The notes below the pieces were generated by a model. It was not told the DNA's origin, made no database searches, and saw nothing but the letters and a program-made list of their open reading frames with translations. From contig LNET01000024.1 in NCBI GenBank assembly GCA_001464055.1, forward strand, positions 1-38,775: 38,775 nucleotides of DNA, written 5' to 3'. Shown piece after piece: positions 1,767 through 19,747 of the stretch (the first letter of the stretch is position 1; every line of letters begins with the position of its first letter). This DNA comes from Burkholderiales bacterium Ga0077543. Lineage in GTDB: Bacteria > Pseudomonadota > Gammaproteobacteria > Burkholderiales > Burkholderiaceae_C. Made by a program: the position numbers and the translations under genes.

Positions 1767-1789
1767 TCATCGGCGGGCCGCGCACGGCG

Positions 1790-2578: not shown

Positions 2579-2656
2579 GGCCGGGCCCGGCCAGGCTGCC
2601 GGGCTCGCTGCGGGGTGTGGATGCTCGAGCCAGCGCATGCCGCCAGCGGTGCCGCC

Positions 2657-2857: not shown

Positions 2858-3549
2858 TTGACCGAGGCCATCGTGGCACTTTTTCCCGTGGGAGGTGATG
2901 TACCGGTGACCTCGTCATGAGCCGGGTATCTCAGCTTGCCCACACCGAACCTCAAGATAGGCCAATAGGGACTGCGCTTGCACCGAATCGGGCCACCGCT
3001 GTGTCTGCAGCACGGTCACGGCCTCGTCGAGGCCACCTTCTGCAGGCGTTATCAGGATGTCAGACAGGCCATCGGCGGAACGGGAGCTGACCTCAGCCCC
3101 TTCCAGCGGTACACGGCGTCGCCCCGCATCGTCGCCGCGTACGGAAACCTCCAGTTCACACTCGAGCCGCCGCCTGAGCCGCGCCGGCGGTCAAAAACAC
3201 CTCCCCATAGGCTGCAATGCCAAACCGCAGCCGGGGCGGTGCCGCTCGACGCTTCGGCGCGGCACGATCGGAATCCGGGCCAACCCTGATAACTAGACCG
3301 CCAACGCCCCTGGTGAGCGTTCCAAGGACCTTCTGACACCGCTCGATGCTACGGCACGGGCGCCAACTCCAGACACATCAGGCCGTCGAAGGCCCGTCTT
3401 CATCCTTCCCCAGGGCCTTCGTATCTCCTATGCGCATCCGCGCTTTCGCCGCTGGTCGATGCCACGCCGGGTCGTCGTCCAGCGCCCCTGCCGCTGGTGC
3501 AGGGTCGGCCGGGCCAGTCGCAACCGCCAGACCGCCGGCCCCGCCGCCG
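2858..3549. other. Non-coding or degenerate stretch downstream of mcr
   Basis: No convincing gene is present. The minus-strand frame 3190-2915 is coding-like in composition over about 90 codons (it includes ADGLSDILITPAEGGLDEA), but it has no usable start codon near its beginning and is cut by an in-frame TGA at 3193-3191. It may be the relic of an older gene. A short GC hairpin (CCCTGC/GCAGGG near 3486-3505) lies just past the mcr stop, without a T-run, so a terminator for the long operon is not evident. Confidence 0.4.
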
Positions 3550-6500
3550 CTACACCGTGATGGCCATGCCGCGGTAGATGCGCGAGCGGTAGCGCGAGTC
3601 TTCCGCGTCGGGCAGCGGCGCACCGGCCAGCAGCACGGCGCGGCCGAAGCGCCGCACTTCTTCCAGATGCTCGCTTTCCTTGCGCGGCTCTTCGCTGCGC
3701 GCACGCCGGGTCAGGTTGATCTGGTTGACCGGCACGTCGTGCACCAGGCGTTCGTTCTCCACCGCTAGCGTGGCGGTGAAGGCGTGCAGCGTGGTCTTGA
3801 CGAAGTTGGCCATGGCGAAGCCCGCGCCCGTGGGGTCGGCCCCGGCCGGCACGTCGGGCGACACCAGCACCAGCTGCGTGCCGTCGATCAGGCTGGCCTT
3901 GCGCGCCACGCGGAAGTGGTGCGTCAGCTGGTCCTGCACCATCTGCCGGAACTCGGCTGCGTCCAGCGCACTGCCGGCGTCACCGCCCAGCAGCTTTTCC
4001 GGCAGCGGCGCAAAAGGCGTGCTCACGATGGTGGCCGGGTAGCCATGCTCGCGCAGCGCCTGGTCGATGCCGGCCTCCAGGTCGGCGCCCACGGTGGCGG
4101 TGTGCAGCAGGTTGGCCGGCACGTCGCGCAGCGCGGCGCGCACCGCAGCGGCGCCCTCGTCGGTCTGGGCCAGCACCACCAGCCTGCCGACCTGGCATTC
4201 CACCACCAGCTGCCGTGCCGCTTCGGCCATGTACTCGACCAGATGCTCGCCAATCAGCCAGACGGTGCGGCCACGCATCATCTCCAGGCGTTCGCGCTTG
4301 GCGCTGCCGAAGAGTTCGCGCTCGGTGATCGAACGCTCCAGGCTGAGACCGCCCGAAGGCATGAAGGTCTCGCCGCTGACGGCGCGGTCGGCCAGGAAGT
4401 AGACGGTGGCAAGCGCGACCTCGGTCTCGGTGGGCATCTTGCCCAGGTGCAGCAGCGACAGCACGCCATTGCGCACCTTGGCCGCCTCGGTCTGCACGCT
4501 TTGCGGCGGCAGGTAGGGCTTGTCGTCGCCGGGCAGCCGCTTCAGCCAGCCGGTGTCGGCGCGGTCCTGCCAGTCGCTGTTGTCCAGCAGCAGGCCACCC
4601 AACCGCAGCCGCGCCAGCAGGCGCTGCGCGATCGACTCGTTGACGAGGTAGCTGCCCCAGTTGCAGTGCTCCACACGTTCCTTGTGGCAGGCCAGGGCCA
4701 GGTCGCGCAGTTCGCGCGGGGCGTCGCCGTCCATCGCCAGTTCGGCCACGTCGTTGGCCGCCAGGCGGCGCAGCAGGGTGTCCACGCTCTGGCCGCGGCG
4801 GTGGGCCTTGACGACGGCGCTGTGCACCGAGTTCAGGCGCTTGTTTTCCAGGATCAGGCGGCCGCGGCGTTCGAACAGCCCGGGGCGCGTGCCCACGCCT
4901 TTCAGACGTTCGCCTTCCACCGGGCCCGGGGCGATGGCGTTGATCTGCACTTCGGGGCCCAGGAAACGCGCCAGGCTTTCCACCAAGGCGCGCTGGCCGG
5001 CCTTGCTGACGGCGTAGTCGCTGCGGTTGGGGTAGGCCACGGCCAGGTACTTCTCGCCGCCGAAGAAGCTGGACACGTTCAGCACGTAGCCGCTGCCCTG
5101 GGCCTTCATCAGCGGCAGCACCTCGTGCAGCAAGGCGTAGTTCGACACCAGGTTGGCGTCGAGCGTGGCGGTCCAGGCCTTCAGGCTCATGTCCACCGCC
5201 ATCTCCTCGGCACCCGAGACGCCGGCGTTGTTGATCAGGTAGTCGATGCGGCCGAAGGCCGCGATGGTGGCCTTCACGGCAGGCGCCAGCGTTTCGAGCT
5301 GGCCCACGTCCACGCCGGGCAGGATGCCGACTCGGCGCTCGGGCGCGGAATAGCCGATGTCCTCGAGTTCGCCGACGATGCGCTCGCGCATGGCCTGCAG
5401 TTCGCTTTCGCGGCGCGCCGCCAGCATCACCCGGGCGCCACCCAGGGCCAGCAGGCGGCCCACGGCACCGCCGATGCCAGCCGAGCCGCCGGTGATCAGC
5501 GCCACCTTGCCGATGTGCAGGCCGGCCAGGTTCTCCGTGAAGCCCACCGTGGCGCGGCGGGCGCCGCTGGCTTCGGCGATGCTGGTGGGCAGGTACAGGT
5601 TGACCTGGCGGATGCGCTGTTCCTTGAACAGCAGCCGCGCGGCATGGCCGGCGGTGAAGGGCAGGCTCTCGGCTTCGCGGTTGTCGTAGCGGATGATCTG
5701 GTTGCCCCATTCGCGGAAGCTGCGGCGGCCCAGGCGCACGTCGACCTCGCTCTCGTCGCGCCAGACGCGGATGAGCTCCTCGGTCGCCGAGCGCAGCAGG
5801 TTGGCCCAGGGCAGGCCACCTTCGACGTCGGCGTTGTCGCCGTCGACGTCGCTGCCCATCGGGCCCGGACTGGCCCCGTTCGTGACGAACACGAAGCGCG
5901 GTTCCTGCCGCAGGTCTTTGCGTTCCTTCCAGTAGCGGCTGAGCATGCGCGCCACGGCAATGGCGCCACCCAGTTCCTCGTCGACGAAGGCATCCATGTC
6001 GGCGTCGCTGGCCCCGCCCAGGCTGCCGGTGAAGCGGTCTGAACCATGGGCCGGCAGGATCACAGCACCGGTGATCGGGCCGCCATGGTCTTCGCTGAGC
6101 GCGGCTTCCATTGAACCCGGGTCGACGCGATCGAAACGGCGCACGTCGATGCGCTGGTCGCTGCGGCGGCCGGCCAGGCGTTCGCGCGCGGCGGCGCAAC
6201 TGGACTCGCGCGCCAGGCCCAGCACCACGTGTGCGCCCACCTCGGCCAGCAGCAGGGCAATGCCCACCGCGTCGTCCACCTGGTCGCCGGCGGCCACCAG
6301 CACGGTCTGGCCCTGGGCGTCGACGCTGCGCATGGTGGGGCGGCTCACCCAGGTGCTGCGGCTTTCCTTGCGCACGCGCATGCCATGGGTGACTTCGAAG
6401 TCGTGGCCGTTGAAGGCGGCCGATTCGTCGCTGCCCAGGAACACGCAGGTGTGGGCGATGTCGGTGGGGACCGGAAAGTCCTTGCGCGGCGGCTCGCCGT

Positions 6501-7281
6501 CGATGGGGCGCTGCAGCGTCATCAGGCCGAAGAATTCATTGGCCGTGCTGCCCGGTTCGGCACCCTTGAGCTGGTCCATGCTGGCGAAGACGCTGCGGAT
6601 GCGCTCGCTGCGGATGGGTCCCGGGAAGACGGTGTTGACGCGGATGCCACGCTCGCCCAGTTCTTCCGACAGCTGGCGCGACAGCGCGTTCAGCGCCGCC
6701 TTGGGCACCACGTAGGCCGTGCGGCCGTAGTACTGGGTGCGCGAGAAGATGGTCGAGACGTTGATGACAGACGCACCCGGCTGCAGCACGGGTGCGGCTG
6801 CTCGCAGCATGTTCCAGGACACACCGAGGATGTTGCGCGTGGCCTGTGCCAGGGTTTCGGTGTCAGTGGAACCCGCGGACTTCAGTTCTTCCAGTTCCTC
6901 GTCGGTCAGCGGCACCTTTTCCAGCGGCTGGCGCGGCCCGGCCGAGCCGGCGTTGTTCACCAGGATGTCCAGCCGGCCATGGCGGGCCATGATCTGCGCG
7001 ATGCCGCTGCGCACGCTGTCGGCGTCGGCGCCGTCCATCACCACGCTGTCGGCCTGCGTGGGCGAGGCCCCGGTTTCGGTCAGGGCGGCATCGAGCGCAG
7101 CGTTCAGCCGAGACTGGGTACGCCCGGACAGCACGACCGTGGCACCCTGGCGCAAGTAGTGGCGAACGATCTCGCTGCCCAGGTTGCCGGCGGCGCCGGT
7201 GATGAGCGCCACCTTGCCGGCCAGGCGGCCGTTGGCGGTGGTGGCAGGTGCCGGTGCTGCGGCTGCCTTCTTGTTGGCCAT
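3550..7281 (-). CDS. mcr: Bifunctional malonyl-CoA reductase (3-hydroxypropionate-forming)
   Basis: A 1,243-residue fused two-SDR protein, close to the roughly 1,220 residues of Chloroflexus Mcr. By homology, the C-terminal half reduces malonyl-CoA to malonate semialdehyde and the N-terminal half reduces that to 3-hydroxypropionate, both with NADPH. The first Rossmann motif is TGAAGNLG (28-35), with NNAG (about 109-112) and catalytic S176, Y190, K194. The second unit has TGGSAGIG (597-604), an NVSSFFGG serine segment (about 735-742) and Y756/K760. The extreme C-terminus, RGMAITV, matches the Chloroflexus enzyme as I remember it. The start ATG 7281 has GGAG 8 bases upstream; longer in-frame starts lack one. 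It is the last gene of the leftward operon, 64 bases after pcs. Both active sites look intact and nothing is truncated. Confidence 0.95.
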   Translation of the reverse strand: MANKKAAAAPAPATTANGRLAGKVALITGAAGNLGSEIVRHYLRQGATVVLSGRTQSRLNAALDAALTETGASPTQADSVVMDGADADSVRSGIAQIMARHGRLDILVNNAGSAGPRQPLEKVPLTDEELEELKSAGSTDTETLAQATRNILGVSWNMLRAAAPVLQPGASVINVSTIFSRTQYYGRTAYVVPKAALNALSRQLSEELGERGIRVNTVFPGPIRSERIRSVFASMDQLKGAEPGSTANEFFGLMTLQRPIDGEPPRKDFPVPTDIAHTCVFLGSDESAAFNGHDFEVTHGMRVRKESRSTWVSRPTMRSVDAQGQTVLVAAGDQVDDAVGIALLLAEVGAHVVLGLARESSCAAARERLAGRRSDQRIDVRRFDRVDPGSMEAALSEDHGGPITGAVILPAHGSDRFTGSLGGASDADMDAFVDEELGGAIAVARMLSRYWKERKDLRQEPRFVFVTNGASPGPMGSDVDGDNADVEGGLPWANLLRSATEELIRVWRDESEVDVRLGRRSFREWGNQIIRYDNREAESLPFTAGHAARLLFKEQRIRQVNLYLPTSIAEASGARRATVGFTENLAGLHIGKVALITGGSAGIGGAVGRLLALGGARVMLAARRESELQAMRERIVGELEDIGYSAPERRVGILPGVDVGQLETLAPAVKATIAAFGRIDYLINNAGVSGAEEMAVDMSLKAWTATLDANLVSNYALLHEVLPLMKAQGSGYVLNVSSFFGGEKYLAVAYPNRSDYAVSKAGQRALVESLARFLGPEVQINAIAPGPVEGERLKGVGTRPGLFERRGRLILENKRLNSVHSAVVKAHRRGQSVDTLLRRLAANDVAELAMDGDAPRELRDLALACHKERVEHCNWGSYLVNESIAQRLLARLRLGGLLLDNSDWQDRADTGWLKRLPGDDKPYLPPQSVQTEAAKVRNGVLSLLHLGKMPTETEVALATVYFLADRAVSGETFMPSGGLSLERSITERELFGSAKRERLEMMRGRTVWLIGEHLVEYMAEAARQLVVECQVGRLVVLAQTDEGAAAVRAALRDVPANLLHTATVGADLEAGIDQALREHGYPATIVSTPFAPLPEKLLGGDAGSALDAAEFRQMVQDQLTHHFRVARKASLIDGTQLVLVSPDVPAGADPTGAGFAMANFVKTTLHAFTATLAVENERLVHDVPVNQINLTRRARSEEPRKESEHLEEVRRFGRAVLLAGAPLPDAEDSRYRSRIYRGMAITV

Positions 7282-7345
7282 GGGGATTCTCCGGGTGCTT
7301 GTCTGATGGGGGTGGTCGGGCAGGTCAGCGGGGATCGGGCGAGGT

Positions 7346-10300
7346 TCAGGCCCGTTCACCCGCAGCCCAGGCTTCGAACAGGGCGTCGCGGCTGCGCAGT
7401 CCCGGCGTGGGCAAGGCGTGGTTGACGAGGTAGTTCGCGCCCTGGTGGCGGTTGTCCCACATGGCCTGGTGGGCCGTGGGCAGGTCTTGCCAGGGCACGA
7501 CGGTGGGCTCGGTGACGTCCAGCAGGCCGGCCGAGACCATGTCGTTCATGCGCGTCACTTCGAAGGCGTTGCACAGGTGGGTGCCCAATATGCTGGCCGT
7601 GGGCATGAGGATGCGGCGCTGCCGCGTCCAGACCTGCGGCGCATAGAACGCATAGCGGCGACCGGCCATCTCTTCGCAATAGACGACGCGGCCGGTGAAG
7701 GGCTTGACCAGGGCGGTGCTGACACCCAGCGCGTCGTGACCGGCGCGTTCCAGGATCAGGTCGGGCGCGCCGCGCGGGTTGTCCGGGCTGCGCAGCAGCG
7801 CGCCCACGGCCGCGCCAAAGGGCTTGAGCGTGCGGTCCTGGAAGTCGCGCACGCCATGGCGGAAGCTTTCGATGTCGCGCTTGGCATCGGCCAGCCGCGG
7901 CATGGTGCGCGGCCAGTCGAAGGCCTGGCCCTGGCGGCGGCGGATGTCTTCGAGCGAGATGACACCGGCCACCGCGTCCTCGAAGCCCAGGGACTGCACG
8001 AACTCGCGCTGGGCGTCGGTGGCGGTGGCCACCACCGCACGGGCCCCGATGGCGCGCACGGCCTCGACCATCTCCAGCCCGGTGGCGTCGAGCAGGGCGT
8101 TGCCGTCGACACCGTAGTACAACAGCACCGCCTCGCCGGCACGGGCGCCGCAGCGCTGCAGCATGGTTTCCGGCGCGGCACTGCCGGGCTTGCCGACGAA
8201 GGTGAGGTGGTAGCCCGACGAAGCGCCGTAGAACGCCAGCGTGCCGCCTTCGCCCAGCAGCTGGAAGCTGCGCGGGAAGGCGGTTTCGCCGGCGTGCGAG
8301 ACGGCATAGTCGGCCAGCCGGCCGCCGTTCTGGCGCCGGTACTCGTCGAGCAGAGGCGCGCCAGCGGCTTCCCAGGCCGCCGGGGCGTCCTCGGGCACCG
8401 GCGTGTACAGGCCGGCGAAGCGTGCGTCGGTGCGGTCGAGAGCGCCCTGGGCGCCCTGGGTCTTCACGAACTCGGCGCGCGCCGGGCTCGAAACACCGCC
8501 GGTGACCGCCAGGCCTGCGCGCATGGCACTCTTCAGCGCCTCGAGCCCGGTGCCGGTGGCCGCGCCTTCGACGAACAGCGACTTGCCGGGGGCGATGCGC
8601 AGGGTCGTGAACAGCGCGCGCACGATCGTGCCCAGGTTCAGGATGTAGGACCCGGCCTGCTCCAGCGTCAGGTCGGGCGGCAGCGGGTGCAGCTGCGGCG
8701 CCTGCGTCACCAGGAACTGGGCGTGGCTGCCGGTGCGGGTTTCGTAGCCCTGGATCGAGAAGCCCACGTACATGGGGTCGCGCGCGGCCAGCGGGCTGAG
8801 CAGGTCGGTCTGGCCCGAATACACCGCGACCAGATCGCCAACCTTGAGCCGGCCCTCGCGCTTGGCCTCGCTGCCCAGCGCCGCCACCAGGGCGACGCCG
8901 CCGGAACCGGTGACCTGCACGTCTTCCTCGTGGTTGTCGAAAGGCGAGACGGGAATGCCCGTGAGCGCCCAGATGTCGTTGAAGTTCACTTCCGAGGCCA
9001 ACATGTAGACCAAGGCCTCGTTCGGCAGCGGCGGCTCCACCGGCACGATGAGCTCGACCTCGCTCTTCTTCGGTTCGCCGAAACGCGGTTCGCCGGTGGC
9101 CGGGTCGCGCGGCACGCCGAAGCCGTATTGCCAGGCCGGCAGCGGCGTGATGCCCGGGTAGAACGGCGAACCCCGCGGCAACAGCCTGCCGTCGGCCAAC
9201 TGCTCCTCGATCCAGCCGCCCTGCTCTTCGACCACGCGCACCGTGCCGCGCCGGGTGGGCAGCGCCGGGCTCTTCTTCTGCATGAACTGCTCGATGCCGG
9301 TCTTGCCACCTTCGGGGTCGACCACGGCCTGTGCGAACAGCTCGGCCTCGATCGCCAGGCCGGCGTCCAGACCTTGCGTCCAGCCGGTGCGGATGGCCTC
9401 GAGCGCGCGATCACGCGCGCCGGCGCGGCCGGCCCACTCCAGCTGCGCGTGCACCTGCTGCAGGTGCGCGTCGGCGAGCACGGCATCGAGTACCGGCGGT
9501 CCGGGCTGCGACCACTCTTCCAGCATCTCCTGCCGCTCGCGCAGCGCCCGTCCCAGGGTGCTGCCTTCGCGGTCGAGCAGGTAGTCGCGAATGCGCGCAT
9601 GGGCGGCCGACAGCACGTCGCTCGAAGCGCCGGCGAGTTCGTCGACCACGCCCACGACCAGCGCTTCGTCGCCGCTGATGTTGCGCCCGCCCAGGATCAT
9701 GTCGAGGGCATCGCGCAGGCCTTCCGCCCCGCGGCGCGAGGCCAGCAGCCGGGGCAGCCTTTGCGTGCCGCCGTAACCCGGCAGCAGGCGCAGGCGAATC
9801 TCGGGCTGGCCGAAGCGCGAGGTCGGCTCGGCGATGCGCCAGTGGCAGGCCAGCGCGAATTCCATGCCGCCACCCAGCGCCACGCCCTGGATGGCCGCGA
9901 TGCAGGGCTTGTTCATTCGTTCGATCTTGCGGAAGGCCAGGTGGGCGTTGTTGGGCAGCGCGCGGGCCTCATCGATGTTGCGGATGTCTTCCAGCAGCTG
10001 CCGGATGTCGGCACCGGCCACGAAGCTGGCCGTGCCCTGGCCGGTGAATACCACGGCGGCCACGTCGTCGCGCCGCGACAGGTGTTCGACGACGACGGTC
10101 AGCTCGTCCAGCGCACGCTCGTTCAGCGCGTTGACGGGCGGGTTGGTCACGGTCACGGTGGCCACCCGGTGCGTGCCCACGCTGTTGAACTGAACCGTGA
10201 AGTAGCGATAGCGCTCGAACATCTGCTGCTCGTCGGCCAGCTGCTGCTTGCGCTTCCAGTCGCCGATGACGCGCCGCAGCTCGTCGATCGATTCGGGATT

Positions 10301-12850
10301 CTTCAGCGTCGACGCATCGCCGACCTCGGAGTCCTCCACCAGCGCCCGCACCATGCGCCGCATGTACTTGCCGCTGCGCGTCTCCGGGAACTGGCTGACT
10401 TCGATGAAGTCGCTGGGCACGGCCACCGCGCCTTTTTCCGAACGCACCAGTTCGCTCAGCCTGCGCCGGTCGTCCTGGGTGATCTTGCGGCCGGCGGTGG
10501 GCTTGACGAAGGCCAGTGGCGTGAGGCCCTTTTCGCGGTGCGGTGCGCCGACCACGATGACGTTGCCCACGGGGCTGTCGGGGTCCAGCGACTTGTGGCG
10601 CAGGATGGCGCCTTCGATTTCCTCGGTGCCCATGCGGTGGCCGCTGACGTTGATGACGTCGTCGCTGCGGCCGTGCAGGCTGAAGCTGCCGTCGCCGTAG
10701 CGCACCGCGAAGTCGCCCTGGGTGTAGGCCCAGGTGCCGCGCCAGCGCGCCCAGTAGGTGCTGTGCCAGCGCTGGCCGTCGCCCTTCCAGCCGTTCTGCA
10801 CGCGGCCGTCGGCAACAACGAAGTTCTCGGCGTCGCCCCACACCGTGCGCGCCAGATAGGGGTAAGGCGCGGCGATGATGATTTCGCCTTTCTCGCCTTC
10901 CTCGGCCGGGCGCCAGGCCACGCCGCCAGCGGCCCGGGTGCGGCCGAAAGGCGTCACGGCTTCGGCCGGCGCGCCGGCGTCCTCGATCCACACGTCGCCG
11001 TGGATCCAGGGCAGCGGGTAGGTGTGGGCGTCGGCCCGCAGCGGGAAGTCGGCGTTGCCGTAGAAGTGCGTCCAGACCATGCCGCCGTGTTCGGTGGCCC
11101 AGTAGCTGTTGATGTACTGCGGCGTCATCAGGTCCATGCCGAACTGCTGCACCGCCGGGCTGGTGGGTTCGGCGCAGAAGGTGGCCACGCGCAGCGTGCG
11201 CAGGTCGTACTGCTGCACGTCGCGCGCGTTCTGCGCGTCGGCCATGATCGTCTTCAGGAAGGTGACGCCGGCCTTGAAGATGCGCACCTGGTAGCGTTCG
11301 ATCATCGAGGCATAACGCCCGGCATGCGGGAAGGTGGGTGCGCCTTCGCCCAGCACGCCGGTGCAGCGCGTGGTCATGGTGGCGCTGAGCATGTAGCTCT
11401 GGCCGGTGATCCAGCCGGGGTCGGCCACGACATAGACCACGTCGCCCGGGCGGGCGTCGAAGGCCACCGACATGGTGTAGGCCACGCCCGCGGTGTAGCC
11501 GCCGTGCACGTGCACCACGCCCTTGGGCTTGCCGGTGGAGCCCGAGGTATAGATGAAGAAGAGCGGGAATTCCGCGTCCAGCGGCACCGGCGGTGCGGCC
11601 GACCAGATGGCACGCACGAAGTCGGCGTCGGGCAGGGCCAGCAGTGCGGCTTCGCTGTCGACGGCGAAGCCGGCAGCACGTGCGGCGGACAACAGTTCTG
11701 CCGTGGCAGCGTCGGTCAGCTCGTGGCTCCAGCGGTCGCGCTCTGCGCGCCACACCAGGTCGGCCTGTGCCGTGTGGCGCACCACCACCACGGCCTGAAC
11801 ACGCTGCGGCGTGGCCACCAGGGCCTCGGCCACGGCGGTGCGCACGCGCGAGGCCTGGGCCGCGTTCAGCCGCCCGTTGCGGCCCAGTTCGCCCAGCGCG
11901 CGGCCGACGCCGCGCATGGCGTCGCTGCGCTGTACCGTCACTTCGCCGGCCAGGGTTTCGGTCACCGTGGCCAGCACCTGCTGCACGTCGGCGTCGTCCA
12001 GGCCCAGCTGGCCCAGGCGCGGCGCGATGACCGCACGCACCGTGCTCACCGGCACGTAATCGTCCAGCGCCGGATCGGTGTAGGCGGTCTTGAACGGCAC
12101 GATCTGCGCGTTGCGGTAGCCGCCGTCGGCCGTGATGACCACGCGCGCGCCGGCGTCGTGGATGCGGTCGGACAGAGTCTTGTCGGAGAAGCCGCCGAAC
12201 ACCGGGGTGTAGACCACGCCCAGGCGCTTGGCGGCTTCGGTCCAGTACAGCTGGGCGGGGATGTTCGGCAGGTTCAGCGCGATGCGGTCACCGGCCTTCA
12301 GGCCCAGGGCCTGCAAGGCCAGAGCGCATTTCGCGGTTTCCAGCAGCAGCAGCTTGCGGCTGATGGCGTGCGCGTCCACAGGCGCGCCGCGTCCGCCGTC
12401 CTGCGACATGTCCCAGCGGTCGCCTTCGAAGAAGAAGGCGGTTTCGGCGCCGAAGCCGGCCAGCACATGGCGGTCGACCTCGTTGAAACAGGCATTGGTG
12501 CAGCCGCCGGAGAACCATTTCCAGTGCGGCGGGTCGCTGTCGTCGAAGGCGCGGTCCCAGGGTTCGAAGCCGGCGCCCAGGTCGGCGACCACGGCGGCGC
12601 CGCTGCGTGCGTCCCAGCCGGTCCAGCGCTGGCGGGCGTCGTCGTAGCTCAGCCAGGCCCCGTGCTGGCCTTGCGAGGCCACGAACCAGTGGATCTGCCG
12701 CCGCGCGATGGCGCCGTGGAACGCACCCGGGTCGGCCAGTGCGGCGGCGCGCTGCTGCTCCCACTCGGCCCGGCTGCGGATGGGATTGTTGTGGGCCTGG
12801 GGCACGGCGGCGGCGGCAGGGGCAGAAGCAGTGGCGGTCATGGCGTTCAT
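7346..12850 (-). CDS. pcs: Propionyl-CoA synthase, trifunctional
   Basis: An 1,834-residue three-domain fusion that converts 3-hydroxypropionate, CoA, ATP and NADPH to propionyl-CoA. Residues 1-870 are an acyl-CoA synthetase: TSGSTGKPKG at 435-444, YWATEHGG near 583-590, and the adenylate-forming lysine K828 in TRSGKYMRR. Residues about 880-1170 are a crotonase-type 3-hydroxypropionyl-CoA dehydratase with both catalytic glutamates, E997 (GGGMEF) and E1017 (GQPEIRL), 20 residues apart as in classical enoyl-CoA hydratase. Residues about 1,230-1,834 are a medium-chain-reductase-type acryloyl-CoA reductase with a GAATGTG nucleotide loop near 1429-1435. Length and domain order equal the Chloroflexus enzyme. 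The start ATG overlaps the mch stop (ATGA), which implies translational coupling. The fusion is known to keep reactive acryloyl-CoA enclosed. Confidence 0.96.
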   Translation of the reverse strand: MNAMTATASAPAAAAVPQAHNNPIRSRAEWEQQRAAALADPGAFHGAIARRQIHWFVASQGQHGAWLSYDDARQRWTGWDARSGAAVVADLGAGFEPWDRAFDDSDPPHWKWFSGGCTNACFNEVDRHVLAGFGAETAFFFEGDRWDMSQDGGRGAPVDAHAISRKLLLLETAKCALALQALGLKAGDRIALNLPNIPAQLYWTEAAKRLGVVYTPVFGGFSDKTLSDRIHDAGARVVITADGGYRNAQIVPFKTAYTDPALDDYVPVSTVRAVIAPRLGQLGLDDADVQQVLATVTETLAGEVTVQRSDAMRGVGRALGELGRNGRLNAAQASRVRTAVAEALVATPQRVQAVVVVRHTAQADLVWRAERDRWSHELTDAATAELLSAARAAGFAVDSEAALLALPDADFVRAIWSAAPPVPLDAEFPLFFIYTSGSTGKPKGVVHVHGGYTAGVAYTMSVAFDARPGDVVYVVADPGWITGQSYMLSATMTTRCTGVLGEGAPTFPHAGRYASMIERYQVRIFKAGVTFLKTIMADAQNARDVQQYDLRTLRVATFCAEPTSPAVQQFGMDLMTPQYINSYWATEHGGMVWTHFYGNADFPLRADAHTYPLPWIHGDVWIEDAGAPAEAVTPFGRTRAAGGVAWRPAEEGEKGEIIIAAPYPYLARTVWGDAENFVVADGRVQNGWKGDGQRWHSTYWARWRGTWAYTQGDFAVRYGDGSFSLHGRSDDVINVSGHRMGTEEIEGAILRHKSLDPDSPVGNVIVVGAPHREKGLTPLAFVKPTAGRKITQDDRRRLSELVRSEKGAVAVPSDFIEVSQFPETRSGKYMRRMVRALVEDSEVGDASTLKNPESIDELRRVIGDWKRKQQLADEQQMFERYRYFTVQFNSVGTHRVATVTVTNPPVNALNERALDELTVVVEHLSRRDDVAAVVFTGQGTASFVAGADIRQLLEDIRNIDEARALPNNAHLAFRKIERMNKPCIAAIQGVALGGGMEFALACHWRIAEPTSRFGQPEIRLRLLPGYGGTQRLPRLLASRRGAEGLRDALDMILGGRNISGDEALVVGVVDELAGASSDVLSAAHARIRDYLLDREGSTLGRALRERQEMLEEWSQPGPPVLDAVLADAHLQQVHAQLEWAGRAGARDRALEAIRTGWTQGLDAGLAIEAELFAQAVVDPEGGKTGIEQFMQKKSPALPTRRGTVRVVEEQGGWIEEQLADGRLLPRGSPFYPGITPLPAWQYGFGVPRDPATGEPRFGEPKKSEVELIVPVEPPLPNEALVYMLASEVNFNDIWALTGIPVSPFDNHEEDVQVTGSGGVALVAALGSEAKREGRLKVGDLVAVYSGQTDLLSPLAARDPMYVGFSIQGYETRTGSHAQFLVTQAPQLHPLPPDLTLEQAGSYILNLGTIVRALFTTLRIAPGKSLFVEGAATGTGLEALKSAMRAGLAVTGGVSSPARAEFVKTQGAQGALDRTDARFAGLYTPVPEDAPAAWEAAGAPLLDEYRRQNGGRLADYAVSHAGETAFPRSFQLLGEGGTLAFYGASSGYHLTFVGKPGSAAPETMLQRCGARAGEAVLLYYGVDGNALLDATGLEMVEAVRAIGARAVVATATDAQREFVQSLGFEDAVAGVISLEDIRRRQGQAFDWPRTMPRLADAKRDIESFRHGVRDFQDRTLKPFGAAVGALLRSPDNPRGAPDLILERAGHDALGVSTALVKPFTGRVVYCEEMAGRRYAFYAPQVWTRQRRILMPTASILGTHLCNAFEVTRMNDMVSAGLLDVTEPTVVPWQDLPTAHQAMWDNRHQGANYLVNHALPTPGLRSRDALFEAWAAGERA

Positions 12851-13905
12851 GCGCGGCGGGGCATCAAAAGTGAGTAGTCGATGTCGAGCACCACCGCGGG
12901 GTCGGCGGGGGCGGTGCTGTCGTGGCCCGGAAAGTCATGGGCCGCGCGGTCCTTGGTGGCCACGGTGCGGATGCGCAGCGCTGCAATGTCGCTGCGCCCC
13001 GGCAAGCTGTCCTTGGCCAGCACCTCGGACCAGGCATACAGCGTGTCGCCGGCAAAACTGGGCGCCACGTGCTTGCCTCCGTGGATGGCGGCGATGCCCA
13101 GGCCGTTGGCCAGGCCGTTGTACGACAGTGCGCGCGCGATGCTGATGACGTGGCCGCCGTAGACGATGCGCTTGCCGAAGCGACCTTCGCGTTCCACGTG
13201 CTGGTTGAAGTGGACCTTGGCCGTGTTCTGGTACAGGCGCGTGGCCAGCATGTGTTCGGCTTCCTCGATGGTGGTGCCGTCGATGTGGTCGATGCGTTCG
13301 CCCACCGCGTAGTCGTCCCAGAGGAATTCGCTGCCGGCGCGGGCGGTGTCGTAACCGGCCGGGCCCACCACGAAGGGGCAATGCAGGTCGGCCACCGGCA
13401 CGCTGGGCGGCAGCTCCGGCACCACGGCTTCAGGGTTCGGGGCTTCGGGGTCGCGCTTGCGCACCATCACCCAGCGCATGTAGTCGAGCACGGTCTGCCC
13501 ATGCTGGTTGACGCCCGTGGACTGCACGTAGACGACGCCGGTCTTGCCGTCGCGGTTGGCCTTCAGGCCGATGACGCGGCTGTCGCTGACCAGGGTGTCG
13601 CCAGGGAAAAGCGGTACGCCGAAACGGCAGCCGGCATAGCCCAGGTTGGCCACGGCGTTCAGGGACACGTCGGCCACGGTGCGGCCGAACACCAGGTGGA
13701 AAGCCAGCATCGAATCGAGCGGCGCGCCGGGCAGGCCCAGGCTGCGGGCGAAAGGGTCGGAAGAGTTGACGGCGAAGCGGCCACCGAACAGGGCCGTGTA
13801 GGCCGCGACGTCGCCCACCGTGACGGTGCGCGGCGGCGCATGCACGATGGCCTGGCCGAGGCGGAAGTCCTCGAAGAAGTTGCCGGCGCGGGTCTTGGTG
13901 GCCAT
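12847..13905 (-). CDS. mch: Mesaconyl-C1-CoA hydratase (beta-methylmalyl-CoA dehydratase)
   Basis: A 352-residue double-hotdog MaoC-type protein. The enzyme interconverts beta-methylmalyl-CoA and mesaconyl-C1-CoA (2-methylfumaryl-CoA). Recognised from the opening GNFFEDFRLGQ, then SLNAVANLGYAG, KTGVVYVQS and VLDYMRWVMVRKRD in the first half, and TRLYQNTAKVHFN, RIVYGGHVISIAR, LRIRTVATKD and the end LLMPRR in the second. These agree along the whole length with the Chloroflexus and Rhodobacter enzymes as I know them. I chose ATG 13905, with a GAAGG-type site upstream, over an in-frame TTG at 13920 that would overlap the mcl stop. It lies 11 bases after mcl, and its own stop overlaps the pcs start by four bases. 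In Chloroflexus mch, mcl and mct are also neighbours. Confidence 0.94.
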   Translation of the reverse strand: MATKTRAGNFFEDFRLGQAIVHAPPRTVTVGDVAAYTALFGGRFAVNSSDPFARSLGLPGAPLDSMLAFHLVFGRTVADVSLNAVANLGYAGCRFGVPLFPGDTLVSDSRVIGLKANRDGKTGVVYVQSTGVNQHGQTVLDYMRWVMVRKRDPEAPNPEAVVPELPPSVPVADLHCPFVVGPAGYDTARAGSEFLWDDYAVGERIDHIDGTTIEEAEHMLATRLYQNTAKVHFNQHVEREGRFGKRIVYGGHVISIARALSYNGLANGLGIAAIHGGKHVAPSFAGDTLYAWSEVLAKDSLPGRSDIAALRIRTVATKDRAAHDFPGHDSTAPADPAVVLDIDYSLLMPRRA

Positions 13906-13916
13906 TTGCTGCGCCT

Positions 13917-14972
13917 TCAAAGACCGTAGGCCGCTGCCAGGTCGGCGTCCTTGCGCGCCAAGAGGCGCGCCAGGTCGACCATCACCTTGGCCTGCTTCCA
14001 GGTGGCGTCGTCCTGCATCTTGCCGTCGATGGTGGCCACGCCCGTGCCGTCGGGCATGGCTTCGAGGATGCGCTTGGCGAACAGCACCTCGTGGACGGCG
14101 GGGCTGAAGACGCGGCGGGCAATGGCGATCTGGTTCGGCGCCAGCGACCAGGCGCCGCTGCAGCCCATGATGAAGGCGTTGCGGAACTGGGCTTCGCAGC
14201 CGGCTTCGTCCTTCAGGTCGCCGAAGGGGCCGTAGAACGCGCCGATGCCGCTGGCGGCACAGGCGTCGACCATGCGCGCCAGGGTGTAGTGCCAGAGGTC
14301 CTGCTGGGCGAAGGCGCGTGGGGTCTCTGAACCGGGCGCGTCAGCGGCCGGATCGGCCAGCACGCCGTAGAACGGGTGGCCGCCACCGACCCGGGTGGTC
14401 TTCATGCCGCGCGAGGCCGCCAGGTCGGCCGGACCCAGGCTCATGCCGTGCATGCGCGGGCTGGCACTGGCGATGAGTTCGACGTTGTTCACGCCCTGCG
14501 CGGTTTCGAGCAGCGCGTGGATCATGATGGGCTTGGTCACGCCGTGGCGGGCTTCCAGCAGCGCCAGGTACTGGTCGACGAAATGGATGTCCCAGGGGCC
14601 TTCGACCTTGGGAATCATCACCGCGTCGACGCGGTTGCCGACGGCCGCGACGATCTGCGCCAGGTCGTCGAGCAGCCAGGGGCTGTTCAGGCAGTTCACG
14701 CGCACCCAGACGGCGGTGTCACCCAGGTCGGTACTGCCGACGGCGTCGATGAAACCCTGGCGCGCCGCGTCCTTGGCGTCGATGGGAATCGCGTCTTCGA
14801 GGTTGCCGCAGAGCACGTCGACCTGGCGCGCGGTGTCGCCCAGGCGGGCGCGGATCTTCTCGATGTGGGGCGGGAAGAAGTGCACCACGCGTTCAGGCCG
14901 CACCGGCCTCTCGCGCCAGGGGGCGGGAGCGCCGATGGCCAAAGGCTTGTAGAAGTTGTTCGGCAGCTTCAA
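13917..14972 (-). CDS. mcl: Malyl-CoA / beta-methylmalyl-CoA / citramalyl-CoA lyase
   Basis: A 351-residue HpcH/HpaI-type aldolase. In the bi-cycle one enzyme cleaves (S)-malyl-CoA to acetyl-CoA and glyoxylate, condenses glyoxylate with propionyl-CoA to beta-methylmalyl-CoA, and cleaves (S)-citramalyl-CoA to acetyl-CoA and pyruvate. Signatures in order: [12 protein letters not shown] (5-16), [27 protein letters not shown] (53-63), [12 protein letters not shown] (119-130), [10 protein letters not shown] with Mg ligand E156, and [14 protein letters not shown] with Mg ligand D183. The 27-residue spacing of these acidic ligands is that of known Mcl enzymes. The start is taken as TTG 14972, because GGAG lies 8 bases upstream and the protein then begins where homologues do; the frame stays open much further upstream, but that part is antisense-type sequence inside mct. 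It follows mct by 23 bases. Confidence 0.94.
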
Positions 14973-14995
14973 GGGGGGGTCTCCGTGCGGTGTTG

Positions 14996-16240
14996 TCAGT
15001 GTTCCGGGCCGGCCACGATGCCGGCGTCGTGCAGGGCGCCCACTTCGTGCGCGGGCAGGCCCAGCAGGTCGAGCAGGATCTCGTCGGTGTGTTCGCCCAG
15101 GCGCGGCGCCGGCCGGGCCGGCAGGCGCGGGACCTGGCTGAATTCCAGCGGCGTGGCCGGCGCCAGGTAGCTGCCGATGCCGGGCTGGTCCAGCAGGCTG
15201 AACATCGGGTGGGCGGTGGACAGGTCGGGGTCCTGGGCCAGGGCCTGGGTGACCTGTCGGTAGGGGCCCCAGGTGACGCGGTGCGCCTCGAAGGCCACCC
15301 GCACTTCCTCCAGGCTGCGTTCGGCGAACCAGGGCTCGAACAAGGCCGACAGCGCCTCGCGGGCTTCGAAGCGGCGGCCTTCCAGCGAGAGGTCGACCTG
15401 AAGCTCGCGGCCCAGCGCGGCCACCTGGTCGGCCAGGCCGGTGGCGTTGAGCAGGCAGCGCCATTGCATGTCGGTCAGGCCCACCACCATCGCGCGTTCA
15501 CCGTCGCGGGTGAGGAAGTCGCGGCCGAAGGCACCGAAGAGGTGGTTGCCGTAACGCGGGCGGTCGACCCCTCCCAGCTGCGCTTCGGCAATCAGCCCCA
15601 GGTGGCCCAGCATGGCCAGGCCCACGTCCTTCAGCGCCAGCGTCACGAGCTGGCCCTGGGTGTGGCGGTCGCGGTGGCGCAGGGCGGCCAGCAGCGCAGT
15701 GGCGATCATCTGGCCGGCAATCGCGTCCCAGGCCGGGAAGACATGGTTGACGGGCTCCTGGCTGCCGCTGGGCCCGGTCAGCGCCGGGAAGCCCAGCTGC
15801 GGGTTGACGGTGTAGTCGACCTCGGAGCCACCGTCGCGCCGGCCCAGCAGGTTGACCATGATGAGGTCGGCGCGGTGGGCGCTGAGCTTGTCGTAGGCCA
15901 GCCAGCCGCGGGCCGGGAAGTTGGTGCTGAAGAGGCCCGCGTCGGCGCCGGGCGCGGTGATCAATGCCGTGAGCAATTCCTGCCCGCGCGGCTGGCGGAT
16001 GTCGACGGCGATCGATCGCTTGCCCTTGTTCAGGCCGGCCCAGAACAGCGAGCGGCCTTCGGCCGTGACCGGCCAGCGATGATGGTCGAGCCCACCGCCG
16101 ATGGGGTCGAAGCGGATGACGTCGGCGCCCAGCTGCGCCAGGCTCATGCCACCCAGCGGCGCGGCGACGAAGGCCGAGCCCTCGACGATGCGCAGGCCCT
16201 GCAGGATGCCGCCACCGGCCTGGGGCGAGAGCGTGCCCAT
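14996..16240 (-). CDS. mct: Mesaconyl-CoA C1-C4 CoA transferase (2-methylfumaryl-CoA isomerase)
   Basis: A 414-residue class III CoA transferase that moves CoA intramolecularly from the C1 to the C4 carboxyl of mesaconate, giving the substrate for Meh. It differs from the two Smt proteins next door and matches Chloroflexus Mct in marker segments: [21 protein letters not shown] (split as LRIVEGSAF and [12 protein letters not shown], 16-36), [51 protein letters not shown] beginning near 130, and the ending [11 protein letters not shown]172 in FPAWD occupies the position of the class III nucleophilic aspartate. ATG 16240 follows the smtB TGA directly, with no base between; an AAGG site lies inside the end of smtB. 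No defects are seen. Confidence 0.94.
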
Positions 16241-17497
16241 TCAGACGGCCTTGCGATCGCGCAGCCGGGCGATCTGCGTGTCGTCGTAGCCCAGCACCTC
16301 GCGCAGGATCTCGTCGGTGTGCTCGCCCAGCTTGGGCCCGAGGCTGCGCACGGTGCCGGGCGTTTCCGACAGGCGCGGCACCGGCGAAGGCACGATGATG
16401 GTTTCACCGGTGTCGGGCGCGTCCATCGTCATCAGGTTGCGGCGGGCGTGGAACTGGCGGTCGCCGAAGATGTCGGCGATGTTGTTCAGCGGCCCGGCCG
16501 GGGTGTCGGTGGCATAGCACCGCTGCAGCACCTCTTCGCGCGTCATCGAGCCGCACCAGTCGCGCACGATCTCGTTGACGTCGTGCTTGTGCGCCAGGCG
16601 CATGGTCTGGGCGCCGTAGAAGTCGTCGGATGCCAGTTCGGCACGGCCCATCGCCCGGGCCAGGCGTTCGAACAGCAGGTCGGTGGCGCAGGAGATGGCC
16701 ACCCACTTGCCGTCCTTGGTGGCGAAGTGGCCGTGCGGCACCGCGAAGTCGTTGTGCGAAGAGCCCGCACGTTCACGCACGATGCCGAACATCGCGAACG
16801 CCGGCGCCAGTTCCTCGGTGCAGCGGAACACCGATTCGTACAGCGCCGCATCGACAAACTGGCCTTCGCCGGTGCGTTCCTTGTGGTGCAGCGCCATCAG
16901 CACGCCCAGGCAGCCGAAGAGGCCGGTCATGTAGTCGCCGAGCGTGGTCGAGCCCGGCGTCACGGGGGTGCCCTTGGGCATGCCCGCCAGGTAGGCGATG
17001 CCGCCCACCGCATGCGCCACCCGGGCGAACCCGGGGCGGTCCTTGTAGGGCCCGGTCTGGCCATAGCCGGTGACGCGCAGCATCACCAGGCCGGGGTTGA
17101 TGGCCTTCAGCACGTCCCAGCCCAGCCCCCATTTCTCGAGCGTGCCGGTGCGGAAGTTCTCGCACAGCACGTCGGTCTTGGCGATCAGCTGCTTGAAGAC
17201 TTCGGCACCTTCGGGCGTGCGCAGGTCGATCGTCATCGAGCGCTTGTTGCGCCCCTCGCTCAGCCAGGTGAGCGTGTCGCCGCGCTGCGAAGGCGTGCCG
17301 AAGCGGCGAAGCGCGTCGCCGCCGTCGGGATGCTCGAGCTTCAGCACGTCGGCGCCGAATTCGCCGAGCAGGGTGGCGCAGTACGGCGCGGCGATGACGG
17401 TGGCGATGTCGATCACGCGCAGCCCGTGCAGGGCCGGCTTGTCGCCCGGAGCGGCGAATGACGAGGAGGAGGTGGACGAACTGGCGGCTTGGCTCAT
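16241..17497 (-). CDS. smtB: Succinyl-CoA:(S)-malate CoA transferase, subunit B
   Basis: A 418-residue class III CoA transferase of the CaiB/BaiF fold. With SmtA it transfers CoA from succinyl-CoA to (S)-malate, giving malyl-CoA for cleavage by Mcl and regenerating succinate. The B-type assignment rests on [20 protein letters not shown] (29-48), [13 protein letters not shown], the block [19 protein letters not shown] followed by nucleophile D188 (168-188), and [17 protein letters not shown], all recalled from Chloroflexus SmtB. A serine-rich leader (residues 5-13) precedes the conserved core and is probably disordered. The start ATG 17497 has an AGGGA site that overlaps the smtA stop; smtA ends 11 bases upstream and mct follows directly. 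The A/B labels are likely but not proven. Confidence 0.9.
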
Positions 17498-17508
17498 GGC
17501 GCTTCCCT

Positions 17509-18747: not shown

Positions 18748-18889
18748 GGGCTTGCTCCATCAGGATCGCGTCGGCGCCATATCGATGCGGGTCCGAGTGC
18801 AACGAGCTTAGATTCCGCGCCGCCAAAGCCGGCCGCGTGGAATCCCGCGCGAATCCGCGAACTTTCTGAAGCCAGCATAGGAAACGCTG
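18748..18889. promoter_or_regulatory. Divergent promoter region between smtA and meh
   Basis: These 142 bases must carry the promoters of the seven-gene leftward operon and of meh. I see no strong sigma-70 -10/-35 pair for either direction, which is usual for activator-dependent promoters. A LysR regulator of the CbbR type is encoded just beyond meh and is the natural candidate to act here. The ribosome-binding sites are GGAG before the smtA TTG and AGGA before the meh ATG. Confidence 0.7.
18811..18844. promoter_or_regulatory. Inverted repeat, candidate LysR operator
   Basis: GATTCCGCGC (18811-18820) and GCGTGGAATC (18835-18844) form an inverted repeat matching at 9 of 10 positions with a 14-base spacer. 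Half-site-like copies continue to the right: GGAATCCCGCGC begins at 18839 and GAATCCGCG at about 18851. Iterated half-sites between divergent genes fit a LysR-type tetramer site. I did not find a clean TNA-N7-TNA CbbR box, so the regulator assignment is inference. Confidence 0.5.
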
Positions 18890-19747
18890 ATGGATACGGA
18901 CTTCCGCGAATGGATCGGCCGCACCGAGCAGGTCGACGACCCGATCTCCCCGGTGCAGGCGCTGGCCGCCCAGGCGATGCTGGACGAAGCCGAGCCTGCC
19001 CTGGTCGCAGGCCAGCCGCTTCCGCTACCTTGGCACTGGTTCTACTTCCTGCCGCGGGCGCCGCAGTCGGCTCTGGACGCCGACGGCCACCCCCGGCGCG
19101 GCGGTTTTCTGCCGCCCATTCCCTACCCGCGTCGCATGTTCGCCGGCGCCCGCATCCAGGTGCATCAGCCGCTGCGCGTGGGCGTGCCGGCACGGCGCGA
19201 GGGGCGGGTCCAGGACGTGGTGATGAAGTCGGGCAAGACCGGCGCCCTGGCCTTCGTCACCGTGGCCTACCGCACCCTGCAGGACGGCGTGCTGTGCCTG
19301 CAGGAAGAACAGGACATCGTCTACCGCGAACCCGGCGCGCCCGTGCTGGCACCGCAGGCCAAGGCGCTGCCCCCACCGCCCGCAGGCAGCTGGTCGCGCA
19401 CGGTCCAGCCCGACACGCGGCTGCTGTTCCGGTTCTCGGCGCTCACCTTCAACGCCCACCGCATCCATTACGACCGCGCCTACGCCGCCGAGGTCGAGGG
19501 CTACCCTGGCCTGGTGGTGCACGGCCCGCTGACGGCCGTGCTGCTGCTGCAATTGGTGCGGCAGTCCACGTCCCGGCCGGTGCTGGCCTTCAGCTTTCGC
19601 GGCCTGGCGCCCTTGTTCGACCTGGGACCGGTGCATCTCCAGGCCACGCCGGAACAGGACACGGTGGGCCTGCGGGCCCTGGGTCCCGATGGCAGCGTGG
19701 CGCTGCAGGCATCGGCCACGCTCGGCGCCGTGGCCGCTGCCGCATGA
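18890..19747 (+). CDS. meh: Mesaconyl-C4-CoA hydratase (3-methylfumaryl-CoA hydratase)
   Basis: A 285-residue FAS1-like/MaoC-type hydratase with two hotdog halves. The C-terminal half has N188-A-H190-R-I-H193-Y-D195 followed by YPGLVVHGPL (205-214), the pattern of this hydratase family. In the bi-cycle it hydrates mesaconyl-C4-CoA, the Mct product, to (S)-citramalyl-CoA, which Mcl cleaves to pyruvate and acetyl-CoA. The family fold alone also occurs in itaconate/citramalate degradation and other acyl-CoA pathways; the specific call leans on its place beside smtA, mct and mcl. The start ATG 18890 has AGGA 7-8 bases upstream. It is divergent from the operon and co-directional with the regulator gene 85 bases on. 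Confidence 0.82.
   Translation: MDTDFREWIGRTEQVDDPISPVQALAAQAMLDEAEPALVAGQPLPLPWHWFYFLPRAPQSALDADGHPRRGGFLPPIPYPRRMFAGARIQVHQPLRVGVPARREGRVQDVVMKSGKTGALAFVTVAYRTLQDGVLCLQEEQDIVYREPGAPVLAPQAKALPPPPAGSWSRTVQPDTRLLFRFSALTFNAHRIHYDRAYAAEVEGYPGLVVHGPLTAVLLLQLVRQSTSRPVLAFSFRGLAPLFDLGPVHLQATPEQDTVGLRALGPDGSVALQASATLGAVAAAA

What the first reader, a model, noticed from the sequence alone, without database searches (positions are those of the whole stretch)
3550..19747. All pathway-specific enzymes of the 3-hydroxypropionate bi-cycle in one betaproteobacterial locus
Eight genes adjoin: smtA, smtB, mct, mcl, mch, pcs, mcr (one operon) and divergent meh. Together they cover every step peculiar to the Chloroflexus bi-cycle; only carboxylases and general metabolism are missing. 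In Chloroflexus, to my knowledge, mcr and pcs lie apart from the other genes. Parts of the pathway (Mcr, Pcs) are known in some proteobacteria, but a complete single-locus set on a chromosome with betaproteobacterial core genes would be a portable CO2-fixation or co-assimilation module.
Basis: partly seen in the sequence, partly recalled or inferred. Interest (0 to 1): 0.95.

Follow-up and report, generated by a model that had tools for sequence, protein, structure and literature searches.

The report
One-locus 3-hydroxypropionate bi-cycle in betaproteobacterium
A betaproteobacterium that carries photosynthesis genes, and in which no RuBisCO gene was found, holds predicted genes for every enzyme peculiar to the 3-hydroxypropionate carbon-fixation bi-cycle side by side in one locus, which it would likely use instead of the Calvin cycle.

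Summary
Seven minus-strand genes (smtA, smtB, mct, mcl, mch, pcs, mcr) and divergent meh fill 3550-19747; each matches its known counterpart over most of its length. The 94.5%-complete genome also has AccA/AccD, a propionyl-CoA-carboxylase-type gene pair, methylmalonyl-CoA mutase and a purple-bacterial reaction-centre cluster, but no RuBisCO match. The eight genes are contiguous in three relatives (G053, Methylibium sp. NZG and, reordered, a Burkholderiaceae MAG) and split, altered or fragmentary in four more. The pathway in Burkholderiales is not new: Garritano et al. 2022 reported complete sets, with one-operon glyoxylate salvage. What I did not find in print: pcs and mcr joined to the salvage operon; a CbbR-type LysR gene beside meh (4 of 7 Burkholderiales loci); a shared 42-bp element between smtA and meh; signs of transfer between families. 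All seven genomes with locus-type Mct among 148 (own included) carry reaction-centre genes; one has true RuBisCO. Best reading: a transferable, light-coupled 3HP bi-cycle operon. Autotrophy versus co-assimilation is untested.

The parts
3550..7359 (-). mcr: bifunctional malonyl-CoA reductase (GTG start 7359; ATG 7281 is an alternative start)
   Evidence: phmmer to 8hi4/8hjw over nearly full length, 1189/1124 bits; YxxxK motifs at residues 216 and 782 invariant in 11 of 11 aligned Mcr
7346..12850 (-). pcs: propionyl-CoA synthase (ligase-hydratase-reductase fusion)
   Evidence: phmmer to 6eqo over 17-1832, 2726 bits; acyl-CoA ligase, enoyl-CoA hydratase and crotonyl-CoA reductase type matches in that order, all below their cut-offs
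12847..13920 (-). mch: mesaconyl-C1-CoA hydratase / beta-methylmalyl-CoA dehydratase
   Evidence: 579 bits to 4e3e, 454 to 8hgn 'beta-methylmalyl-CoA dehydratase'
13917..14972 (-). mcl: malyl-CoA/beta-methylmalyl-CoA/citramalyl-CoA lyase; TTG start at 14972
   Evidence: 636 bits to 4l7z, far above the 4l9y malyl-CoA lyase (186 bits); start read
14996..16240 (-). mct: intramolecular mesaconyl-CoA transferase
   Evidence: 655/642 bits to 7xkg/8apq, next family 89 bits; Leu51 and Asp172 correspond to Leu43/Asp165
16241..17497 (-). smtB: succinyl-CoA:malate CoA-transferase subunit B
   Evidence: SmtB clade with Chloroflexota and Accumulibacter; 73-76% identical to L023, L024 and L025
17509..18747 (-). 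smtA: succinyl-CoA:malate CoA-transferase subunit A
   Evidence: SmtA clade; 70-74% identical to L023, L024 and L025
18808..18849 (+). shared 42-bp element TTAGATT-N26-AATCCCGCG between smtA and meh, likely operator or promoter
   Evidence: 1 match in window, 0 in 100 shuffles; a looser form gives 6 hits in 2.0 Mb of fetched DNA, all in this intergenic region of 5 genomes. The pattern was read from these sequences, so this is not an independent test
18890..19747 (+). meh: mesaconyl-C4-CoA hydratase
   Evidence: 67% identical to the divergent gene in Chloroflexota L023 and L024; PDB relatives 8khg/8huc
19833..20792 (+). CbbR-type LysR regulator, likely regulator of the locus
   Evidence: best NCBIfam CbbR NF045990 271 bits, below its 450 cut-off; best PDB 5y2v 'Rubisco operon transcriptional regulator' 258 bits; beside meh in L157, L021/L166, L156
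20824..23590 (-). recR and dnaX: chromosomal core genes flanking the locus
   Evidence: Pfam RecR domains, DNA_pol3_delta2

Best explanation
The locus encodes homologues of all enzymes peculiar to the 3-hydroxypropionate bi-cycle in one predicted operon plus a divergent meh-LysR pair, and it likely gives this predicted phototroph, in whose assembly no RuBisCO was found, a light-driven route for fixing bicarbonate and co-assimilating small acids, likely under a CbbR-type regulator. Steps as inferred from homology: acetyl-CoA is carboxylated, malonyl-CoA is reduced to 3-hydroxypropionate by Mcr, and Pcs converts that to propionyl-CoA. Propionyl-CoA carboxylase and methylmalonyl-CoA mutase lead to succinyl-CoA, and SmtAB moves the CoA to malate. 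Mcl splits malyl-CoA into acetyl-CoA and glyoxylate. Mcl, Mch, Mct and Meh then fuse glyoxylate with propionyl-CoA and yield pyruvate and acetyl-CoA through citramalyl-CoA. Shown: gene content, order, recurrence, accessory genes, reaction-centre genes, no RuBisCO match. Inferred: activities, co-transcription, regulation by the LysR, autotrophic flux.
For: Gene identities and order. Accessory genes in the same genome: AccA and AccD above NCBIfam cut-offs; a methylmalonyl-CoA mutase split over contigs C59/C128, in one frame with MeaB on C128, then a carboxyltransferase (TIGR01117, 789 bits, under its 999 cut-off) and a biotin carboxylase above cut-off. No RuBisCO large-subunit match. pufL, pufM, pufC, puhA with crtB, pucC-type, rubrerythrin-domain (recalled as acsF) and bchM-type genes on C126; PufL 96% identical to G053. 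Same order contiguous in G053 and Methylibium sp. NZG, cut inside pcs by contig ends in G043 and G074, in pieces in G024. All 7 of 148 genomes with Mct of 74% or more carry PF00124 (G043 a fragment), against 48 of the other 141 (Fisher p 0.0008). LysR and its kin score 271-280 bits to CbbR where two RuBisCO-adjacent LysRs score 304-306; the next family is 194-206 for the LysR and kin. Of the 30 contigs over 20 kb among the top 120 Mct hits, 11 equal in length one among the top 120 Mcr hits, 13 a LysR one, 9 both (length is a proxy for identity of contig).
Against: No expression, activity or labelling data. Within the genus (G000-G080) the phototrophy association is weak (5 of 5 against 41 of 76, p 0.066), the rows are related, and lack of true RuBisCO is not significantly tied to the locus (1 of 7 against 23 of 48 other phototrophs have it, p 0.12). 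G024 has both locus genes and RuBisCO, and G149 and Rhodopila G155 also have RuBisCO. G149 has all eight genes but no reaction-centre match. The epimerase was found only as a sub-cut-off match, 47 against 115 bits; AccB and AccC were not sought by name. The assembly is 94.5% complete, so absence of RuBisCO is not proof. The LysR misses the curated CbbR cut-off (so do both RuBisCO-adjacent controls) and is not beside meh in G043, G074 and L022/L159.
Confidence: 0.7

Rival explanations
1. The locus is mainly for photoheterotrophic co-assimilation: acetate, propionate, glyoxylate or 3-hydroxypropionate from neighbours are assimilated with redox balancing, and net autotrophy does not occur.
For: Garritano et al. 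interpret the incomplete sets of Actinobacteriota this way, citing C. aurantiacus, and Seah et al. do so for Kentron, which lacks Mcr and Pcs. Half of the other related phototrophs also lack true RuBisCO (25 of 48), as expected for photoheterotrophs.
Against: Here the acetyl-CoA to propionyl-CoA half (Mcr, Pcs) is present and joined to the salvage half, which co-assimilation of propionate alone would not need; the regulator is of the CbbR kind.
Confidence: 0.45
2. The contig is contamination or misassembly from a Chloroflexota bin.
For: The salvage half is 67-79% identical to Chloroflexota loci L023 and L024; the cluster's GC (69.9%) is 3-6 points above its flanks.
Against: recR and dnaX follow on the same contig; the same locus recurs in other genomes, on contigs of 84 and 192 kb; the 90%-identity clusters of the window's Mct and of its LysR both list a longest contig of 221,559 bases; Mcr is 49-51% identical to two Chloroflexota Mcr (51-54%) but 68-84% to six Burkholderiales ones.
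Confidence: 0.02
3. The set was inherited vertically from an ancestral Burkholderiales phototroph and lost in most descendants, so it is not a mobile module.
For: G053 and G043 are sisters and close to the window in the core and Mcr trees, and PufL of G053 is nearest of those compared.
Against: Mcr of G117, from another family, nests inside the host family's rows; holding the family or the genus together is rejected (AU p 0.013 and 0.0096). No window flank gene but the LysR was found beside the locus in NZG (over 16 kb seen beyond meh), or in the shorter stretches seen in G043, G074 and G117; G053 shows too little to judge. Only 2 of 399 order-wide genomes have Mct of 80% or more.
Confidence: 0.2

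Closest known systems
3-hydroxypropionate bi-cycle of Chloroflexus aurantiacus (Chloroflexota)
   Same: All pathway-specific enzymes have counterparts here; the salvage operon has the same order with divergent meh in two Chloroflexota loci, L023 and L024.
   Different: In C. aurantiacus mcr (Caur_2614) and pcs (Caur_0613) lie apart; in G151 and G152 the short contigs that hold mcr (7.9 and 6.3 kb, one side cut) show no pcs. Here both are appended to the salvage operon, and Mcr is only 49-51% identical to those two.
3HP bi-cycle gene sets of Burkholderiales and Gemmatimonadota MAGs (Garritano et al. 2022, PMC9802188)
   Same: Complete predicted gene set in Burkholderiaceae and Ga0077523, photosynthesis predicted, salvage genes in one operon (section 7 read).
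   Different: Section 7 describes only the salvage genes as one operon and names no linked mcr-pcs or CbbR-type gene; the supplements could not be read here.
Partial 3HP bi-cycle of Accumulibacter, Competibacter, Kentron (Seah et al. 2019, PMC6593406)
   Same: Salvage enzymes of the same families; Accumulibacter L026 has smtA-smtB-mct-mcl-mch.
   Different: No Mcr match in Accumulibacter G153; Mcr and Pcs absent in Kentron (passage).
CbbR / RuBisCO-operon LysR regulators
   Same: Best family and best solved structure for the LysR beside meh.
   Different: Sits beside a 3HP locus in a genome without a RuBisCO match; 45-46% identical to RuBisCO-adjacent LysRs L127 and L128.

Membership tests
3-hydroxypropionate bi-cycle | Bifunctional malonyl-CoA reductase and trifunctional propionyl-CoA synthase | tested here: met
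   Near full-length matches to 8hi4/8hjw and 6eqo; both Mcr YxxxK motifs conserved
3-hydroxypropionate bi-cycle | Intramolecular mesaconyl-CoA transferase with catalytic Asp and gating Leu/Ile | tested here: met
   Asp172 and Leu51 correspond to Asp165 and Leu43 named in PMC9813914
3-hydroxypropionate bi-cycle | SmtA/SmtB, Mcl, Mch, Meh present | tested here: met
   Meh by position and identity to Chloroflexota, its substrate not established
3-hydroxypropionate bi-cycle | Acetyl-CoA and propionyl-CoA carboxylases and methylmalonyl-CoA mutase in the genome | tested here: met
   AccA, AccD and a biotin carboxylase above cut-offs; carboxyltransferase of the propionyl type below its NCBIfam cut-off; mutase split over two contig ends
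3-hydroxypropionate bi-cycle | Methylmalonyl-CoA epimerase | tested here: inconclusive
   Best match 47 bits, cut-off 115
3-hydroxypropionate bi-cycle | Enzyme activities and autotrophic carbon flux | not testable with these tools
   Needs extracts and labelling
CbbR regulators | Score above the curated NCBIfam NF045990 cut-off (450 bits) | tested here: not met
   271 bits; the two RuBisCO-adjacent LysR controls, 304 and 306, also miss it, so the LysR is called CbbR-type, not CbbR
CbbR regulators | Controls a RuBisCO operon in the same genome | tested here: not met
   No RuBisCO match in G000

The most novel reading that the evidence does not exclude
Within a genus of purple photosynthetic betaproteobacteria, the Calvin cycle has been replaced by a horizontally moving, single-operon 3HP bi-cycle. 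The operon was built from a Chloroflexota-type salvage half and a proteobacterial-type Mcr-Pcs half, and it has captured a Calvin-cycle type (CbbR) regulator that acts on a conserved operator between smtA and meh.
Probability: 0.3. Interest if true: 0.85.

Novelty: new variant of a known kind. Interest (0 to 1): 0.64.

Why it matters
The 3HP bi-cycle was long tied to Chloroflexota; a one-locus version in betaproteobacteria would show that the specific part of a CO2-fixation pathway can travel as one unit. It would give a natural 16-kb template for moving the pathway into proteobacterial hosts, and a set of near relatives with Calvin cycle, bi-cycle genes, both or neither, in which a swap can be tested. 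A CbbR-type gene beside it makes regulatory capture directly testable.

Tried and rejected
Contamination or misassembly: rejected (recR/dnaX on the contig, recurrence in other genomes, a 221-kb contig in the Mct and LysR clusters).

Counting every Mct-like match: one search gave 21 of 148 genomes. I kept the 7 at 74-100% and dropped 14 at 49-58%. Loci were given for 13 of those 14 (L008-L020); 12 show no mcl, mch or meh nearby and no smtA/B match over 28%, while L009 (G118) has smtA (67%) and meh (57%). In one search, 3 of 5 matches (53-58%) were likewise set aside.

Topological proof that the two halves differ in origin: not reached. Mcr is closer to Rhodopila (55%) than to Chloroflexota (49-51%) while Mct, Mcl and Mch run the other way, but the branches that conflict have support of only 75-84. 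No Chloroflexota Pcs was in hand.

LysR box: no TNA-N7-9-TNA match in the window's smtA-meh region. Sigma-70 scan: none found, 0.8 expected. Viral-contig scan with the 42-bp pattern: 45 matches, taken as chance and not followed.

Rows dropped or partial in trees: L025 left out of the core tree; L071 (broken mct) and L169 (partial mch) could enter it with two genes only. The Pcs tree lacks Chloroflexota, G043 and G024.
Full report
The observation. The eight frames are intact and in the places given. On the minus strand, in transcription order, lie smtA 18747-17509, smtB 17497-16241, mct 16240-14996, mcl 14972-13917, mch 13920-12847, pcs 12850-7346 and mcr 7359-3550; on the plus strand meh 18890-19747 is followed 85 bases on by a LysR gene, 19833-20792. 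Neighbouring frames overlap or nearly abut, as in one operon; co-transcription itself is inferred. Solved relatives support the assignments of Mcr, Pcs, Mct, Mch and Mcl. Meh has weaker solved relatives, one named itaconyl-CoA hydratase; its assignment rests on 67% identity to the gene in the same divergent place in Roseiflexus and another Chloroflexota locus. SmtA and SmtB were placed by tree. Mct keeps the catalytic aspartate and gating leucine described for the Chloroflexus enzyme in PMC9813914 (passage). NCBIfam has no pathway-specific model that the four scanned proteins pass.

The genome. The window is the whole contig C24 of a 5.19-Mb, 130-contig, 94.5%-complete assembly. It has no match to the RuBisCO large subunit (the search rings in 5 of 14 control genomes). 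AccA and AccD pass their cut-offs. A methylmalonyl-CoA mutase is split over contig ends C59 and C128; on C128 it runs in one frame with MeaB and is followed by a carboxyltransferase (best model TIGR01117, below cut-off; the propionyl-CoA type is my reading) and, one gene on, a biotin carboxylase. An epimerase was seen only as a weak match on C128. Contig C126 carries pufL, pufM, pufC, puhA and bacteriochlorophyll/carotenoid genes; PufL is 96% identical to that of the same-genus genome G053 and only 40-43% to two Chloroflexota. So the reaction centre is purple-bacterial. The genus is probably Rubrivivax: an Mcr named 'Rubrivivax sp.' lies on a 5,921-base contig, the length of contig C140 of same-genus genome G074; this is an inference.

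The locus elsewhere. Of 148 relatives, 7 including G000 have Mct at 74% identity or more; 14 more matches at 49-58% were set aside as a different subfamily. Of 399 genomes drawn across the order, 2 (G000, G117) have it at 80% or more. The full order meh | smtA smtB mct mcl mch pcs mcr is contiguous in G053 (L157) and Methylibium sp. NZG (L021, L165, L166; NCBI Betaproteobacteria, Sphaerotilaceae), cut within pcs by contig ends in G043 and G074, fragmentary in G024 (meh and pcs not seen), and altered in G117 (another family), where a single hybrid, short smtA/smtB remnant stands in for the pair. A Burkholderiaceae MAG (L022/L159) has all eight with pcs-mcr on the other side of meh. In Gemmatimonas (L071/L158) the salvage operon and pcs-mcr are on separate contigs. 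In Chloroflexota L024 the salvage operon has the same order without pcs-mcr in the 2.7 kb seen after mch; L023 ends at mch, and L025 shows only smtA to mcl on a 6.6-kb contig. Accumulibacter (L026) has the salvage genes but no Mcr match in its genome. Rhodopila (L160) has pcs-mcr beside mch, mct and mcl without smtAB or meh. So all eight genes in one place were seen here only in Burkholderiales, in two arrangements.

History. In a tree of Mct+Mcl+Mch the Burkholderiales rows other than L022 form one clade (100/100), and with L022, Gemmatimonas, Chloroflexota and Accumulibacter they stand apart from the alpha- and gammaproteobacterial rows (100/100). In the Mcr tree the Burkholderiales, Gemmatimonas and Rhodopila rows stand apart from Chloroflexota (100/100), and the window's Mcr is closer to 6k8s/6k8v (950/664 bits) than to the other solved Mcr parts (735/448 and below). 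The two halves thus differ in which outside group is nearest, which suggests, without proving, two sources; no Chloroflexota Pcs was compared. Mcr of G117 nests within the host family; a clade of the host family or genus is rejected (AU p 0.013, 0.0096). Both clades were named after the tree was seen, which weakens those p values. Window flank genes other than the LysR were not found beside the locus in NZG, G043, G074 or G117 within the DNA fetched, 16 kb beyond meh in NZG but only 2-6 kb in the others; in G053 less than 1 kb is held there. I read this as transfer within the order.

Company. All 7 locus-type genomes among the 148 relatives have PF00124 (G043 a fragment), against 48 of 141 others (p 0.0008); within the genus 5 of 5 against 41 of 76 (p 0.066). 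The rows are related, so these p values overstate. Among 15 genomes searched by handle, 10 of the 12 with Mcr have a full PF00124 pair, G043 has the fragment and G149 none; of the three without Mcr, two have none and one is below cut-off. True RuBisCO (my line: E below 1e-100) is in 1 of 7 locus-type genomes and 23 of 48 other phototrophs (p 0.12); G117 has only a weaker match.

Regulation. The LysR next to meh matches CbbR best among NCBIfam models (271 bits; next 202) and the 'Rubisco operon transcriptional regulator' 5y2v best among solved structures (258; next CmpR 175). LysRs that adjoin RuBisCO in G024 and G149 score 304 and 306 on the same model, so the curated cut-off of 450 is too strict for this group. 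The same LysR (74-82%) is beside meh in G053, NZG and G117; G043 has a different, NhaR-like LysR there, and none was found beside meh in G074 or L022/L159. Some of its close relatives bear the JGI name 'low CO2-responsive transcriptional regulator'. The smtA-meh gap holds a shared element, TTAGATT-N26-AATCCCGCG at 18808-18849, found in the same place in G053, G043, NZG and, looser, G074, and nowhere else in 2.0 Mb of fetched DNA (the pattern was drawn from these sequences). It was not found in G117 or L022. Since G043 and G074 keep the element without that LysR alongside, the link between the two is a guess.

Prior work. Garritano et al. 2022 (PMC9802188; abstract, outline, passages, section 7) reported complete 3HP bi-cycle gene sets in MAGs of Burkholderiaceae (4) and Ga0077523 (3), with predicted photosynthesis and the salvage genes in one operon, and in two Gemmatimonadales. 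Seah et al. 2019 (PMC6593406; passages) list partial sets in Accumulibacter and others and cite Shih et al. 2017 (not held) for transfer. I found no description of a one-locus set with pcs and mcr, or of a CbbR-type neighbour, in ten searches, of which I opened four papers (PMC9802188, PMC6593406, PMC9813914, PMC3150298) and saw the rest as listings; preprints, subscription papers and supplements were outside reach.

Verdict. A real, recurrent, one-locus set of all enzymes peculiar to the 3HP bi-cycle in betaproteobacteria that carry reaction-centre genes. The pathway in this order is known from genomes since 2022; the single-locus form, its neighbour regulator and its signs of mobility are the new part. 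Function as autotrophy or co-assimilation is untested.

Noticed in passing
L156:16152-16841: In G117 (another family) smtA and smtB are replaced by one short hybrid: smtA-like start, smtB-like middle; either a deletion between the paralogues or an assembly collapse.
   Followed up: partly
L071:10001-11206: The mct gene of the Gemmatimonas MAG gives two separate matches with a gap between, so it looks broken.
   Followed up: no
L165:5260-6165: Methylibium sp. NZG has a second CbbR-type LysR (223 bits to the CbbR model, 41% to the window's) about 1 kb beyond the end of mcr.
   Followed up: partly
window 23627-37614: Ordinary chromosomal genes by Pfam: AIR synthase-type protein, solute-binding protein, helicase with DUF3418, amino-acid kinase with acetyltransferase domain, GGDEF-EAL protein, DnaG primase.
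   Followed up: no
window 635-2918: Three frames downstream of mcr have no Pfam match at 1e-8 and GC falls to 63%; perhaps not genes, or an acquired stretch.
   Followed up: no
L154:34-2334: The methylmalonyl-CoA mutase piece and MeaB share one reading frame, a possible fusion.
   Followed up: no
L053/L160 (Rhodopila, alphaproteobacterium): pcs-mcr lies beside mch-mct and mcl, but no smtAB or meh nearby; that genome also has RuBisCO and reaction-centre genes.
   Followed up: partly
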